DNA from: Rheinheimera sp. D18
GTDB lineage: Bacteria > Pseudomonadota > Gammaproteobacteria > Enterobacterales > Alteromonadaceae
Length of the DNA stretch: 64,000 bases
Assembly: GCF_004345025.1 (NCBI RefSeq)
Contig: NZ_CP037745.1
Coordinates: 744,001-808,000 of the forward strand
Reading direction: 5' to 3'
In this document: in pieces, positions 30,948 through 35,637 of the stretch
Layout of the letters: each line of letters starts with the position of its first letter
Position numbering within the stretch: the stretch's first letter is position 1
The notes under the pieces: generated by a model
Database searches by the model: none
Told to the model about the DNA's origin: nothing
What the model saw: only the letters and a program-made list of their open reading frames with translations
Made by a program: the position numbers and the translations under genes

Positions 30948-33101
30948 ATGGCAATAAAACCTGAAAGCCCCTTGCAAGTGGGTGAATGGCAGTATTTACC
31001 TGAGCAAGACAAACTGGTGCAGTTTGCTAGCGACGGAAAAATAGCTGTTACCGCAGATTTAGATAACCTGTCACAAAAGGTAGCTAACTATTTTATTGTT
31101 AATGCGGGAAGGCTCGTTACCAAAGACGAGTTATTACAGGACGTATGGGGTATTCGCGACGTATCGGACGGTCGCGTTACCCGCGTTATCCGGGTATTAC
31201 GTGTCGCTTTAGGTGATGATACTCGTGAACCTCGTTATATCGAAACCATTCCTAAGCGCGGTTATCGCTTTATTGCGCCGGTGTCTGTAATTCAGAATGC
31301 AGTAAATATATATAATGGCGAACCATCAGACGCTGTTACTAGCAGTGACGAACCGCAAAAGTTAAAGCGTTTAGTAATGTATGTCTTAGTACTACTGCTG
31401 CTTGTATCAGCACTTTTTTGGTGGCTATGGCCTGCCGATTCAGGTGCAGTAGAGAAAATGGCAACGGATATCCCAATGCTGCGCTACAAACCTGTCACTT
31501 CGATGGATGGTTTAGAGTTTTACCATAACGTTTCTGCTGATGAGCGGTATCTTGCTTTTAGCTATGCTAGTCCGGATGCTGAAAGTGTGACTGTGCTGAT
31601 GTTACAGGATTTACTGGAGTACAAACAAACACGGATTACAGAACCTAGCTACAGCAGTTTTGGTGCGGCATTTAGCCCAGATAACAAACAAATTGCTTAT
31701 CACAGGATGTATCCGGATGGTGCTTGTGAGATTCGTGTTATTAAACTTAACTTAGAAAAACTAACAGTTGCTAGCGATGATCTTGTTGTAACTTGTGGTG
31801 TTAATTCCATTTCGTCTCGTATCTCATGGTCTCCAGATGGTAATTATCTAATTTATCCAACCATGAGTGCACAAAAGCAAATGGTCATTATGCTTAAACC
31901 TGTGCATAGCGGGCTTGCTGAACAGCTTACTGTGCCGCCACCAAATAGCTTTGGTGATTATGCTGCGAGATTTTCACGTAATGGTTCCAAGATACTTTTT
32001 TTACGTGATGCAGCTGGAGCGGCTCAGTTATGGATATTAAACTTATCGAGCCGAGAAACAAAAATGCTGACTAACATCACTGATACTATGCCGGGAAATG
32101 CTGATTGGGATCTTACTAATAATGCTATTATTTATCCTTCAGGGCCCACGACACTCAGCAAGGTAGATGTTAATAGCGGTGAAGTTAAAGTTATCGCTTA
32201 CACTGATTCTTCAGCTTCGGAAATTCAAATTGCCAAAAGTGGTAGGGTTTATGCCAGTGTTGGCAATTTTTCGCATATCAATATTACTAAAACACCCAAT
32301 ATGTTGCATAATTCTAAAGTGTCTACACAGACCGTATTTAGCTCTAACCGAAACGAAAGTTTGGTTGAAGTAAGCCCAATAGCGGGTGATCCTATTGCTG
32401 TGGTCTCTAGACGCTCGGGTTTGCCACAAGTTTGGTTATTTTACCCCGACGGTAGTCAAAAACAAATTACGTTTTTTAACACTAGAGAGCGCTTTAGAAG
32501 CTTAGTATTTTCACCAGATGGTAAAACTTTAGCAGCGCAGGTAAATAACGAAGTATGGTTATTGTCAGCCACTCAGTCACCAAGAAAAGTTGCTACCGGC
32601 GGCGATAATTTAATTTCCTCACCAGTATGGAGTAGCGATGGAAGTGCCATCTATTATGCAGAATCAAAAAATGCTCGTTGGAATATTATTCGTTTAATTA
32701 TCTCTGGCGAAGAGGAAACAGCGAGCATATTTGCTGAAAACCGAGAGCTATATATTGAAAGTTATGATGGCAAATACAGTATATGGCGTGATGCAATTAG
32801 CAAAAAGTTTTACGTGCGATGGCATAGCAATAACAAAGTAGAAGAATTGCCGATTCAGCTGCCAGAAAATCAACTTTGGCTGAAGTTTCAGTTGAAAAGT
32901 AAAGGTGTGTACTTTACCTATTTACTGAATGATATTAACTATCAGCTGCAATATTATGATTTCACCACCCGCGAACTATCCATTGCTTTAGAATCAAATT
33001 TATACCACAGCCGCTTCAGCTTATCGCCTGATGAGGAGTCGGTGTATATACTACAATCGGTTCGCGGTGACTTTGATATTGCTCAAATTGATTTGCCCTA
33101 A
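30948..33101 (+). CDS. ToxR/CadC-like transmembrane transcriptional regulator with periplasmic beta-propeller
   Basis: A 717-residue one-component membrane regulator. Residues 1-110 are an OmpR-type winged helix (LVTKDELLQDVWG, then the recognition-helix stretch VTRVIRVLRVALGDD and the wing IETIPKRGYRF). One membrane span lies near 141-162, so the rest is periplasmic. That part carries WD40/TolB-like repeats (FSPDNKQIAYH, WSPDGNYLIYP, FSPDGKTLAAQ, WSSDGSAIYYAE), as in CadC-type proteins with PD40 sensors. It would sense a periplasmic signal and bind DNA from the membrane. Only 18 bases separate it from mrcB. A paralogue lies at 33556-35637 with a small exported protein between. Ligand and targets are unknown. 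Confidence 0.9.
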   Translation: MAIKPESPLQVGEWQYLPEQDKLVQFASDGKIAVTADLDNLSQKVANYFIVNAGRLVTKDELLQDVWGIRDVSDGRVTRVIRVLRVALGDDTREPRYIETIPKRGYRFIAPVSVIQNAVNIYNGEPSDAVTSSDEPQKLKRLVMYVLVLLLLVSALFWWLWPADSGAVEKMATDIPMLRYKPVTSMDGLEFYHNVSADERYLAFSYASPDAESVTVLMLQDLLEYKQTRITEPSYSSFGAAFSPDNKQIAYHRMYPDGACEIRVIKLNLEKLTVASDDLVVTCGVNSISSRISWSPDGNYLIYPTMSAQKQMVIMLKPVHSGLAEQLTVPPPNSFGDYAARFSRNGSKILFLRDAAGAAQLWILNLSSRETKMLTNITDTMPGNADWDLTNNAIIYPSGPTTLSKVDVNSGEVKVIAYTDSSASEIQIAKSGRVYASVGNFSHINITKTPNMLHNSKVSTQTVFSSNRNESLVEVSPIAGDPIAVVSRRSGLPQVWLFYPDGSQKQITFFNTRERFRSLVFSPDGKTLAAQVNNEVWLLSATQSPRKVATGGDNLISSPVWSSDGSAIYYAESKNARWNIIRLIISGEEETASIFAENRELYIESYDGKYSIWRDAISKKFYVRWHSNNKVEELPIQLPENQLWLKFQLKSKGVYFTYLLNDINYQLQYYDFTTRELSIALESNLYHSRFSLSPDEESVYILQSVRGDFDIAQIDLP

Positions 33102-33137
33102 GTGTTTTATAACCACTTTATAATAATTTCGTAGAGA

Positions 33138-33152
33138 TTAAATAAGATTAAA
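33138..33152 (+). promoter_or_regulatory. ToxR-type direct repeat upstream of the small exported protein gene
   Basis: TTAAA-TAAGA-TTAAA at 33138-33152 matches the TNAAA-N5-TNAAA pattern known for ToxR, and the longer repeat unit AGATTAAA recurs at exactly 10 bases. It lies 70 bases upstream of the start at 33222. A TATATA (33175-33180) could be the -10. The region is AT-rich, so chance is not excluded. Confidence 0.4.
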
Positions 33153-33221
33153 ATACTAGCTTGGTCACGATGCATATATAAATACTTCGACGTTATCAAC
33201 ATTTTACTTAGGGCTAAAAAT

Positions 33222-33449
33222 ATGAAAGTAAGTATATTAGGGTTGGCAGCCGGAATGGCTTTATTAGCCGTAGCAACCAGTGACACTGTAATTGAATTTA
33301 ATAATAACTCGGCAGAGCTTATTGCTTGTGGCTGGTTTCCCTTGTGTGGTGATCCAGATATCTATAACCCAATGATAGAACCTAAAGATTCAAAATCAAT
33401 AACAGACAGCAAAGATAACAAGAACGATAAAAACGCTAAATTAGCATAA
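33222..33449 (+). CDS. Small exported protein, uncharacterised
   Basis: A 75-residue protein with an N-terminal signal-like segment (VSILGLAAGMALLAVATS) and a short mature part. Two cysteines six residues apart (CGWFPLC) could form a disulfide, and the last 25 residues are very hydrophilic, rich in Lys, Asp and Asn. AGGG lies 10 bases upstream of the ATG. I do not recognise a family. It sits exactly between the two ToxR-like regulators, on the same strand, with a ToxR-type repeat in front, which suggests it is a target or a periplasmic partner of one of them. Confidence 0.6.
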   Translation: MKVSILGLAAGMALLAVATSDTVIEFNNNSAELIACGWFPLCGDPDIYNPMIEPKDSKSITDSKDNKNDKNAKLA

Positions 33450-33516
33450 GAAGTTTTTCAGCTGTTTGATGAATGGTTTAGTAAACAGAAGCGCTAAACA
33501 TTTTGTCGAGTTAATG

Positions 33517-33522
33517 TATACT
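33517..33522 (+). promoter_or_regulatory. Candidate -10 element for the second regulator
   Basis: TATACT lies 34 bases upstream of the ATG at 33556 without a good -35 at the proper distance, which would fit an activator-dependent promoter. A short inverted repeat GTTTAGTAAAC is at 33476-33486. Confidence 0.35.
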
Positions 33523-33555
33523 CCGCCCAGATAGTTTGCAGTAGGGCGGTTGTTA

Positions 33556-35637
33556 ATGTTGAATATTCACGCTGTGGTACAGTTTGGTGATTGGTACTAT
33601 CAGGTGATATATGGTCAGTTATGGCCTGTTAATCAGCCAATGACAAGTGAACATATGGTTCGGCTTGAACCGCGGCTGCATAGTCTACTCAATTTTTTTC
33701 TACAACATCCCAATACCTTACTAGCAAAAGACATCCTAATAGATAAAGTTTGGCCAGCAAATGAAGGCACAGACGCTGCCGTTATGCGTGCAGTTGGCGC
33801 TTTGCGTAAGGTATTAGGCGATGATGCGCGCACTCCGGTTTATATAGCAACAGCATCTAAAAAAGGCTATTGCTGGCTTGCTGAGGTTCAGGCTGCTTCT
33901 CTGCCTGCTGATGCACCAATAATTAATGCCGACGTTGAAATAGACCATGCTACAGTGCCAATTAACGCTGACGTTATCGCTAAACCGTGGTCGTGGCGCT
34001 TTATGGTTGCCACTACACTCACCGTGATTTTAGGCTGCGCCAGTGTGGCTTTTGTTCTAGCAAAATTTACCGCTACACCTTTAATTCGACTACCAGATAG
34101 TATAGTGCCAATTAGCGCATTAAGCGGGCAAGAATATTGGCCGGCACTTAACGCTAACCAAACGCATGTGATTTATCAGCATAAAGCACTTGAGACTACG
34201 GCATTAAATTGGAGTATACAAAATCTTACTGATTTGCGCGTGAGGCATGCGCCAGAGCGTTATCAGCAGTTATCGCAGGCAATTTGGTTAGATGATCAAC
34301 ATATCGTGTTCCGTGGCATTAAAGCTGACACCGACTGTCATTTTTATCGTCAGCAATTGTTACCAAGTATTGGTGCAGCTGAAATGCTATGGCCATGTAA
34401 CACGGTGTTAGCCCAAGGCCTAACCGCATGGCAAGATCAGTTGCTGTGGTTAGACAGTGATAACAACAATAACGCACAACTGTGGCAAGGAACGCCAGAT
34501 AAACCTGCAAAGATGTTAAGTGTGCTGCCAAATGCGTGGCGTAAGCTTGAGCACCTATTAGTTAGTAATAACAGTGCATATTTACTGGCTGAAGAGACGG
34601 TAAATAATAGTATTTTGTTAAAGCTTGACCTACCTAATGGCGCGTTAGAGTTAGTTAAACGTTTTCCGTTTATTGTTAGTCAGTTTTCTTGGTGGGATCA
34701 GTCTCAGCTGCTTCTTTCGCCACAAGATCTTGAGCTGGAAATAGTTGACATTCTCAGTTTAACTAGCCAAAAACTTGGGCCGTTATCACGCAACCTAACT
34801 CAGGCTATACGCTACCCTGGCCAGGTAATAGCAGTGCAATACCTTAACTATACGACCGATATCTTTGAGGTTTCAACCCGGCCGCAATTGCCTGAAGTTA
34901 CAACTTATAAACCGTGGCATGTTAGTAACCGCAGTGAGCGTTTGCTGGCAGCAAGTGCAGAAAAAATCGCCTTTGTATCAGAACGGACTGGGAATAATGA
35001 AATTTGGTTAGCCCAAGGCGCAGATAGCATCCAGCTTGCGCGGCTGCCGGATGATCAGCAGGTGCAACAGTTGTTGTGGCATAAAGGTAATTTGCTCGTG
35101 CTGCTCAATAGTCAGTTATATACATTAGATATTGTTAAGCCTGCACTGATACCGCAATTGGCGCAGCCCACTAGCCCTGGACGTTACGCCAGTTGCGAAG
35201 ATGTGTTGTATTGGACCGAACTGACTAATGATGGTTGGGCGTTGTTTACGCAAACACATGATACGAAGCAACTTGTCCATCGTGGCGTAGTTGATGTGCG
35301 CTGTGCACCAGAACAAACGCTAGTATTGCAGTTTGCTGAAAATAACAACTTGATGCTACGGCACAACGATGGCCGCCTTGCGCAGTTACCCGTACAAATT
35401 AATTGGCGCCAGCAAAATGCTGAACAGTGGTTTGTTGATAGCAGTGGTATTTATTGGCTAGATCAAGCCAACCATAGAATACAGGCTTATGCATGGCTAG
35501 AAGGCGGGGCTCAAAGTTTCGCTTTGCCGCAATCACAGCCACCGGTGGCGATATACAGTAAGGGGAAAGGGGTGGGTTATATCGTGCAGCCAAGGCTGCA
35601 CGATACCGATATTGTTTGGTTAAAAAACCGTCGCTAA
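33556..35637 (+). CDS. ToxR/CadC-like transmembrane transcriptional regulator (paralogue)
   Basis: A 693-residue protein with the same plan as the one at 30948: a winged helix in residues 1-105 (HPNTLLAKDILIDKVWP, AVMRAVGALRKVLGDDAR, IATASKKGYCWL), a membrane span near 149-171 and a long periplasmic region. The propeller repeats are more diverged than in the paralogue, but FVSERTGNNEIWLAQG corresponds to its SRRSGLPQVWLF. AGGGCGG is 6 bases upstream of the ATG at 33556; a TTG at 33550 is less well placed. It ends just before the convergent hemL. A perfect 12-base inverted repeat lies inside its last codons. Confidence 0.88.
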   Translation: MLNIHAVVQFGDWYYQVIYGQLWPVNQPMTSEHMVRLEPRLHSLLNFFLQHPNTLLAKDILIDKVWPANEGTDAAVMRAVGALRKVLGDDARTPVYIATASKKGYCWLAEVQAASLPADAPIINADVEIDHATVPINADVIAKPWSWRFMVATTLTVILGCASVAFVLAKFTATPLIRLPDSIVPISALSGQEYWPALNANQTHVIYQHKALETTALNWSIQNLTDLRVRHAPERYQQLSQAIWLDDQHIVFRGIKADTDCHFYRQQLLPSIGAAEMLWPCNTVLAQGLTAWQDQLLWLDSDNNNNAQLWQGTPDKPAKMLSVLPNAWRKLEHLLVSNNSAYLLAEETVNNSILLKLDLPNGALELVKRFPFIVSQFSWWDQSQLLLSPQDLELEIVDILSLTSQKLGPLSRNLTQAIRYPGQVIAVQYLNYTTDIFEVSTRPQLPEVTTYKPWHVSNRSERLLAASAEKIAFVSERTGNNEIWLAQGADSIQLARLPDDQQVQQLLWHKGNLLVLLNSQLYTLDIVKPALIPQLAQPTSPGRYASCEDVLYWTELTNDGWALFTQTHDTKQLVHRGVVDVRCAPEQTLVLQFAENNNLMLRHNDGRLAQLPVQINWRQQNAEQWFVDSSGIYWLDQANHRIQAYAWLEGGAQSFALPQSQPPVAIYSKGKGVGYIVQPRLHDTDIVWLKNRR
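35580..35605 (+). repeat. Perfect inverted repeat inside the 3' end of the second regulator gene
   Basis: TATCGTGCAGCC (35580-35591) and GGCTGCACGATA (35594-35605) are perfect complements with two bases between, so the RNA would fold with an 11-base stem and a 4-base loop. It lies 32 bases before the stop codon, inside coding sequence. Confidence 0.8.

What the first reader, a model, noticed from the sequence alone, without database searches (positions are those of the whole stretch)
30948..35637. Two paralogous ToxR/CadC-like membrane regulators flank a small exported protein, with a ToxR-type repeat between them
Seen: two long proteins with an N-terminal winged helix, one membrane span and a periplasmic propeller-like domain, and between them a 75-residue protein with a signal peptide, a CxxxxxC pair and a charged tail. 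Upstream of the small gene, 33138-33152 reads TTAAA-TAAGA-TTAAA, the known ToxR pattern TNAAA-N5-TNAAA. Known: ToxR often works with a periplasmic partner (ToxS), CadC senses through its periplasmic domain. Inference: the small protein is a target gene product or a periplasmic co-sensor, making a sensory module that I cannot match to a named system.
Basis: partly seen in the sequence, partly recalled or inferred. Interest (0 to 1): 0.7.

Follow-up and report, generated by a model that had tools for sequence, protein, structure and literature searches.

The report
Membrane regulators paired with exported disulfide-loop peptide
Two membrane-anchored gene switches sit on either side of a gene for a tiny exported protein with a small two-cysteine loop, and similar pairings recur beside related switches in bacteria of other families, which suggests an undescribed peptide-and-receptor signalling module.

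Summary
The three genes are real. Regulators A (30948-33101) and B (33556-35637) each have a ToxR/CadC-type winged helix, a membrane span and a large periplasmic beta-propeller region; between them lies a 75-residue exported protein with a CX5C loop (CGWFPLC). In the genus 24 of 31 genomes have all three genes and 7 of 31 have none; the absences look like two losses of the whole set. Alkalimonas has the same triad at the same site. The ToxR box is at chance level and missing in 17 of 17 relatives.

Beyond the finding: related regulators in other families sit beside otherwise dissimilar small exported proteins with C-x3-P-x-C. A uniform test found one beside 30 of 34 regulators of three partner groups (the other 4 have a CX6C variant), 0 of 58 other regulators of the superfamily and 0 of 189 other genes. 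Duplicated cores agree in amino acids while codons differ. I read this as a co-component system in which the loop is the propeller's dedicated ligand. Binding is not shown; two structure predictions left the peptide unplaced.

The parts
30948..33101 (+). Regulator A, 717 aa: winged helix + one membrane span + periplasmic (probably tandem) beta-propellers; Cys260 and Cys283 in 17 of 17 orthologs
30948..31283 (+). A: cytoplasmic winged-helix DNA-binding domain (residues 1-112), 83% mean identity to 17 orthologs
31353..31427 (+). A: membrane span (residues 136-160, helix in the model)
31473..33089 (+). A: periplasmic all-beta region, TolB/PD40-like, probably tandem beta-propellers (residues 176-714), 52% mean identity to orthologs
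33117..33139 (+). Place of an element aligned in the genus after the stop of A (TTTAT-N7-TCATCGAGTT in many relatives; the window copy is divergent); possible regulatory site
33138..33152 (+).
33222..33449 (+). Small exported protein, 75 aa: signal-peptide-like N-terminus, linker, CX5C core, K/D-rich tail
33327..33347 (+). Core CGWFPLC (residues 36-42), proposed disulfide-loop ligand; both Cys in 18 of 18 genus sequences, C-x3-P-x-C in 17 of 18
33495..33522 (+). Sigma-70-like promoter of B (TAAACA-N16-TATACT); the pattern alone is at chance frequency in the region, but the -10 box is kept in relatives
33523..33549 (+). Inverted repeat CCGCCC...GGGCGG just before B, kept by paired changes in relatives; overlaps the likely Shine-Dalgarno sequence
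33556..35637 (+). Regulator B, 693 aa from ATG 33556: same architecture as A, no PD40 match of its own; Cys263, 283, 549, 585 (numbered from the TTG) in 16 of 16 orthologs

Best explanation
A co-component signalling module. The small protein is exported; its two cysteines probably close a 7-residue loop (C-x-x-aromatic-P-x-C), and this loop is the dedicated ligand of the periplasmic propellers of its neighbouring membrane-tethered regulator(s). Binding, or loss of binding when the peptide is cleaved, reduced or displaced, changes the dimerisation or conformation of the winged-helix regulator at the membrane, which then turns target genes on or off. In this genus and Alkalimonas one peptide gene serves two paralogous regulators, A and B (agonist/antagonist or heterodimer); elsewhere one peptide serves one regulator. 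Shown: gene structure, export-type N-terminus, invariant Cys pair, all-or-none occurrence and co-loss, recurrence beside related regulators in other families, matched core copies. Inferred: disulfide formation, direct binding, direction of regulation, targets.
For: All three genes in 24 of 31 genus genomes, none of the three in 7 of 31 (small; A: 16, 107; B: 17, 108); adjacent in 23 of the 24 (in G012 B lies about 5 kb away). At the vacated site mrcB faces hemL with a gap of 55-93 bp in 5 of 7 and one 195-198 aa gene in 2 of 7. The absences are two separate losses (a clade of 6; G021, sister of triad-bearing G019) if the triad is ancestral, as Alkalimonas suggests. Outside: 21 of 22 loci found with a distant regulator have an adjacent small exported CxxxPxC ORF, the 22nd being cut by a contig end (2 of the 22 are from the genus, 2 more had been seen before). 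Uniform test: 18 of 18, 10 of 10 and 2 of 2 regulators of three partner groups and 6 of 6 B rows, against 0 of 58 other regulators and 0 of 189 other genes. Groups were labelled by having a partner, so the weight lies in the clades without negatives and in the zeros. In 79 named-genome loci (a capped list) the scan found it in 12, always within 252 bp of the regulator. CX6C partners tail to tail in 9 of 14 loci of another search, which an operon does not explain. Core copies in one protein (4 Alkalimonas) or in tandem genes (L137) agree in amino acids while 1, 2, 5, 4 of 7 and 7 of 12 codons differ. Foldseek matches include LRP6 solved with disulfide-constrained peptides.
Against: No binding shown. 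Two AlphaFold predictions of regulator plus small protein as one read-through chain left the core at pLDDT about 35-38 (window; L134), so no confident placement; the tool gives no interface, and the alignments were shallow, but it is a negative. Foldseek TM-scores are low (at most 0.36) despite E-values of 1e-18 to 1e-12, so the LRP6 analogy is one of fold class, and the top matches are axonemal chains. 58 of 58 other regulators of the superfamily show no such peptide beside them. G012's core is CIWYTYC, without the proline. 5 of 14 loci have no clear CX6C partner. The core codon difference in L158 is one codon only. No target gene was identified.
Confidence: 0.55

Rival explanations
1. Cell-to-cell pheromone: the core is cut out of the exported precursor, leaves the cell as a roughly 1 kDa disulfide loop, and is sensed by neighbours through the same propeller regulators, i.e. 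peptide quorum sensing with a membrane-tethered transcription factor as receptor.
For: Precursor-like layout: signal peptide, variable linker, conserved core, variable charged tail; two cores in one Alkalimonas precursor and two tandem genes with one core in L137; the core varies between species but is matched within a species.
Against: I recognised no exporter, processing protease or outer-membrane route beside the genes, though neighbours outside the window were not annotated systematically. Nothing shows release from the periplasm. The same facts fit a purely periplasmic ligand.
Confidence: 0.2
2. Target only: the small protein is an output (for example a secreted effector or antimicrobial) whose gene the regulators control; the regulators sense something else.
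For: An element precedes the small gene in the genus; B has its own promoter-like sequence. Regulators often lie beside their targets (recalled).
Against: The rest of the small protein is poorly conserved while core and adjacency are kept; core copies are matched to each other; partners lie downstream, divergent (L147, L148) or tail to tail; in the genus loss is of the whole set.
Confidence: 0.15
3. Redox gauge: the small protein is a DsbA substrate whose cysteines report periplasmic thiol state to the regulators' conserved cysteines (A Cys260/283; B four Cys).
For: Cys pair in 18 of 18 genus small proteins; conserved Cys in A (17 of 17) and B (16 of 16) periplasmic regions.
Against: A pure redox gauge needs neither the aromatic-proline motif nor species-matched core residues; two regulators with partners (L055, L127) lack the Cys pair in the alignment.
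Confidence: 0.08
4. Coincidence: an unrelated small ORF kept by synteny between mrcB and hemL.
For: Synteny of the block is conserved in the genus.
Against: Recurrence at unrelated loci in other families and the zeros of the controls; co-loss of all three genes.
Confidence: 0.02

Closest known systems
Co-component systems ToxR/ToxS, TcpP/TcpH, VtrA/VtrC (PMC9214523: abstract, introduction start, section 6 and passages seen)
   Same: Membrane-tethered CadC-like winged-helix factor with a neighbouring gene for a periplasmic partner; fast-evolving periplasmic parts
   Different: Of the 14 pairs in its Table 1, 12 partners are called lipocalin, one (VtrC) known and one a half barrel, and several genes overlap; here the regulator carries large propellers and the partner is a small exported disulfide-loop type protein. 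'propeller' and 'TolB' occur 0 times in that paper's main text
CadC (one-component, PDB 5ju7)
   Same: Winged-helix domain (phmmer E 6.3e-10), one membrane span, periplasmic sensor
   Different: Different periplasmic domain; no small partner protein of this kind known (recalled)
TolB beta-propeller (PDB 1crz, 2ivz, 3iax)
   Same: Sequence similarity of part of the A propeller (E 2e-7); TolB binds peptide segments of colicins and Pal (recalled)
   Different: TolB is soluble, with no winged helix or membrane span; not a regulator (recalled)
LRP5/6 ectodomain with Dkk1, sclerostin or disulfide-constrained peptides (PDB 3s2k, 6l6r, 8dvm)
   Same: Propeller ectodomain bound by small disulfide-containing ligands; among the 50 best Foldseek matches
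   Different: Animal receptor, no homology implied; TM-scores at most about 0.3
Peptide pheromone systems of Gram-positive bacteria (agr, ComCDE; recalled)
   Same: Small precursor gene beside its receptor gene, species-matched variable core
   Different: Receptors there are kinases or cytoplasmic regulators, no propeller receptor (recalled)

Membership tests
ToxR/ToxS-type co-component system | CadC/ToxR-like winged helix at the N-terminus | tested here: met
   Trans_reg_C E 2e-13 (A), 1.3e-13 (B); CadC and ToxR chains in PDB for A
ToxR/ToxS-type co-component system | Single membrane span between winged helix and periplasmic domain | tested here: met
   A: helix 136-160 in the model. B: hydrophobic stretch seen by eye only
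ToxR/ToxS-type co-component system | Partner is a ToxS/VtrC-type lipocalin-like protein | tested here: not met
   Partner is 75 aa with no family match; too short for a lipocalin barrel (inference)
   Chance frequency in window; absent in 17 of 17 relatives
ToxR/ToxS-type co-component system | Partner binds the regulator's periplasmic domain | tested here: inconclusive
   Two read-through fusion models did not place the core
CadC one-component regulator | Full-length CadC model match | tested here: not met
   NF007540 matched only in residues 9-119 (A) or 9-122 (B), 48.6 and 66.3 bits against a cut-off of 400
TolB-like beta-propeller proteins | PD40/TolB propeller repeats | tested here: met
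   A: PD40 63.7 bits, cut-off 20.9, four stretches; TolB equivalog 82.9 bits, below its cut-off of 343. B: only through the profile match to A-type regulators
Peptide pheromone system | Peptide released and active between cells | not testable with these tools
   needs supernatant assays
Peptide pheromone system | Precursor gene genetically linked to its receptor gene | tested here: inconclusive
   Linkage of small gene and regulator is shown; that the regulator is its receptor is inferred

The most novel reading that the evidence does not exclude
A large, undescribed family of Gram-negative peptide signalling systems: small exported precursors with a C-x-x-aromatic-P-x-C (or CX6C) disulfide loop act as species-specific pheromones read directly by membrane-tethered transcription factors whose receptor part is a tandem beta-propeller, with A and B as paired receptors of opposite output in this genus and Alkalimonas.
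Probability: 0.22. Interest if true: 0.92.

Novelty: new variant of a known kind. Interest (0 to 1): 0.72.

Why it matters
Membrane-tethered winged-helix regulators with propeller-type sensors turned up in many gammaproteobacterial genomes here, and my searches found no text naming their ligand. A gene-linked, motif-defined small exported protein gives a concrete ligand candidate for three groups of them, testable with a synthetic 7-15 residue peptide. If the peptide leaves the cell, it would be a new form of peptide communication in Gram-negative bacteria; if not, it is still a new partner class for co-component regulation.

Tried and rejected
ToxR operator: at chance and not conserved. Regulon search with TTTAT-N7-TCATCGAGTT, one mismatch, in 12 genomes: 11 matches, 7 at the triad; the other 4 equal the 4 of the reversed control; no regulon found, and the window's own copy is too divergent for the pattern. 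Docking by read-through fusion prediction: two jobs, core not placed. Family libraries for small proteins: window protein none up to E 1 in Pfam and NCBIfam; 8 further ones in Pfam only: Dockerin_1 for the 203-aa L135 protein, none at its cut-off for the other seven (weak sub-threshold matches such as Motilin_ghrelin E 0.0036 taken as chance). Literature: nine searches, judged from their listings (titles, abstract starts), showed no description of this pairing; only open PMC papers are held. PMC10269533 was searched by terms only (TolB, WD40, propeller, PD40 0 times).

Counting choices: the order-wide search with the genus profile (3 of 394, all in the genus) cannot see the more distant partners, so it is no proof of absence. 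The tree used 102 of 129 distinct regulators, most A and B orthologs of the genus being left out as redundant; labels for L133, L137, L139, L140 and L024 were set by hand because the stricter filter missed their partners; one search recovered all of them. in full: partner_P 18 of 18, A 10 of 10, CxxCPxC 2 of 2, B 6 of 6, dockerin 1 of 1, CX6C rows 0 of 4 (other motif), contig-edge rows 0 of 3, others 0 of 58; control 190 genes with 1 hit, which is a duplicate copy of a partner-bearing regulator (L151 = L096), hence 0 of 189. G012 was not among the 10 A rows and would fail the pattern. One search printed 10 of 14 loci: 9 clear (L228-L236, some the same genomes as L162, L168, L194), L237 doubtful; L238 is the dockerin locus, L239-L241 printed nothing. 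Several named loci are the same contigs as unnamed ones. Deep forks that would decide one or three origins are weak. The organism of the window was not identified by any search.
Full report
What is there. ORF listing and translation confirm three same-strand genes: regulator A 30948-33101, a 75-aa protein 33222-33449, and regulator B, listed from TTG 33550. Relatives align with an ATG at the place of 33556, so B is probably 693 aa. Both regulators match Trans_reg_C; A has PD40 repeats and a sub-threshold TolB match; the small protein matches no family. A and B are full-length paralogs (BLASTP E 1e-17; profile-profile E 3e-49 over 656 columns). The neighbours are HrpB, penicillin-binding protein 1B (mrcB), HemL and aspartate carbamoyltransferase.

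The ToxR repeat. TNAAA-N5-TNAAA occurs 7 times in 64 kb against 8.9 expected, and none of 17 relatives has it between A and the small gene. It is chance. What aligns there instead is an element, TTTAT-N7-TCATCGAGTT in many relatives and divergent in the window; in 12 genomes tested, 7 of 11 matches lie at this locus and the rest equal the control.

The genus. The small protein was found in 18 of 41 genomes with a single sequence, all in the genus, and with a profile in 24 of 31 genus genomes, once each. Orthologs of A and B occur in the same 24, and the remaining 7 have none of the three. The order mrcB-A-small-B-hemL holds in the window and 16 of 17 relatives examined; in G012 about 5 kb separates the small gene from B and hemL was not looked at; in the other six genomes the three genes are adjacent by their coordinates. 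In the 7 lacking genomes mrcB and hemL face each other, 55-93 bp apart in 5 and with one 195-198 aa gene between them in 2. A quick tree of HemL, MrcB and HrpB places six of the lacking genomes in one clade (support 100) and G021 as sister of triad-bearing G019 (100). Three Alkalimonas loci hold A, small gene and B between mrcB and hemL, so the whole set was most simply lost twice. The small proteins share both Cys (18 of 18), C-x3-P-x-C in 17 of 18, and end in KLA or QLA in 13 of 18. The winged helix of A keeps 83% mean identity and the periplasmic part 52% (17 orthologs), those of B 70% and 47% (16 orthologs); A keeps two and B four periplasmic cysteines.

Beyond the genus. A distant regulator beside a small exported CEPFPEC protein was used to search an even sample of 394 genomes of the order: 23 places in 18 genomes. 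Of 22 loci examined, 21 have an adjacent small ORF with a hydrophobic start and C-x3-P-x-C; the other is cut by a contig end. Two of the 22 are from the genus, two more had been seen before, and L135 is a 203-aa dockerin protein on the opposite strand. A scan of named genomes returned 79 loci, a capped list of the best 80 of 194 (Kangiellaceae, Aliikangiella, Alkalimonas, Kangiella, Colwellia and others); 12 of 79 have the motif ORF, all within 252 bp of the regulator, and the scan found none elsewhere in those loci (815,503 bases). Some of these are the same contigs as. On 102 distinct regulators a quick tree gives three partner groups: A type (10 rows, support 100), Kangiellaceae type (18 rows, 99) and a Kangiella group (6 rows, 100); 58 rows elsewhere have none, and partner presence needs 3 changes (deep forks weak). 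The uniform test gave 18 of 18, 10 of 10 and 2 of 2 for the C-x3-P-x-C rows, 6 of 6 for B, 1 of 1 for the dockerin locus, 0 of 4 for the CX6C rows, 0 of 3 at contig edges, 0 of 58 for the others and 0 of 189 control genes after setting aside one duplicate regulator. Because rows were grouped by partner, the evidence is that no negatives fall inside the groups and no positives outside.

A CX6C class. Four Kangiella-type regulators have, on the opposite strand and tail to tail, small exported proteins with CRLFGYFC (two), CRLFNVFC or CKLFPKLC. Searching the order with one of them gave 14 places in 14 of 394 genomes; 9 have a clear CX6C partner within 54 bp, 1 is doubtful, 1 is the dockerin locus and 3 show none.

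The core is the selected unit. In four Alkalimonas proteins the core occurs twice; the two 7-residue cores are identical within each species, while the four species have four different cores, and 1, 2, 5 and 4 of the 7 core codons differ between the copies. In the 15-codon stretch around them there are also 2, 5, 2 and 2 amino-acid differences, outside the core. At four variable sites in and just after the core 15 of 16 species-site pairs match, the best of 24 permutations (four related species, so indicative only). In L137 two tandem small genes share a 12-residue core with 7 synonymous and no amino-acid changes, while the upstream parts agree at 28 of 46 residues. This is what a ligand unit matched to one receptor would show.

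Structure. AlphaFold models of two regulators, each with its small protein attached by read-through, have mean pLDDT 80.4 and 80.8 with a winged helix, one helix at the membrane and a large all-beta region. The best Foldseek matches are axonemal doublet-microtubule chains; tricorn protease and LRP6, including LRP6 with Dkk1 or disulfide-constrained peptides, are among the first 50 (E 1e-18 to 1e-12, TM at most 0.36). The small core has pLDDT about 35-38 in both: no docking evidence.

Mechanism and novelty. The best reading is a co-component system in which the exported loop is the propeller's ligand. It resembles ToxR/ToxS in principle but fails the membership test on the partner and on the operator. 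Kinch et al. (PMC9214523; abstract, start of introduction, section 6 and passages seen) list lipocalin-type partners and one half barrel; the transmembrane regulator survey PMC10269533 was only searched by terms. The listings of nine literature searches showed no report of this pairing.

Noticed in passing
window 33517-33558: Inverted repeat CCGCCC...GGGCGG between the -10 box and the start of B; in 15 sequences 98.3% of pair cells are kept and 3 of 8 pairs have changes on both sides. The right arm overlaps the likely Shine-Dalgarno sequence, so it may be an RNA hairpin limiting translation of B, or an operator.
   Followed up: partly
window 33117-33139: Element after the stop of A, TTTAT-N7-TCATCGAGTT in many relatives, before the small gene.
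   Followed up: partly
L025 7091-12061 (G012): About 5 kb between the small gene and regulator B in one genome; three of its long ORFs have no Pfam match.
   Followed up: partly
L158 7125-7397, L159 2548-2832, L169 7175-7468, L173 7155-7457: Alkalimonas small proteins carry two cores per protein, identical within a species.
   Followed up: yes
L135 3816-4427 (same place as L095 9176-9787): A 203-aa Dockerin_1 protein with CPQFPDC just after its hydrophobic start lies convergent to a propeller regulator.
   Followed up: no
L137, L140, L142, L143: A sigma-70-family (ECF-like) sigma factor gene lies upstream of these regulators (Pfam tested for L137 only); possible link with the peptide system.
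   Followed up: no
L160 2442-4781, L174 2965-4794: Two regulators of the superfamily without peptide partner are divergent from exported enzyme genes (S15 peptidase, beta-lactamase-family protein), suggesting other inputs there.
   Followed up: no
window 33438-33446 and orthologs: The tail of the small protein ends in KLA or QLA in 13 of 18 genus members and in A in 17 of 18; could be a protease or PDZ recognition end.
   Followed up: no
L155 7161-7337, L156 7121-7276: Variant small exported proteins with CYVCPRCC and CRICPKCC, convergent to regulators of the Kangiella group.
   Followed up: partly
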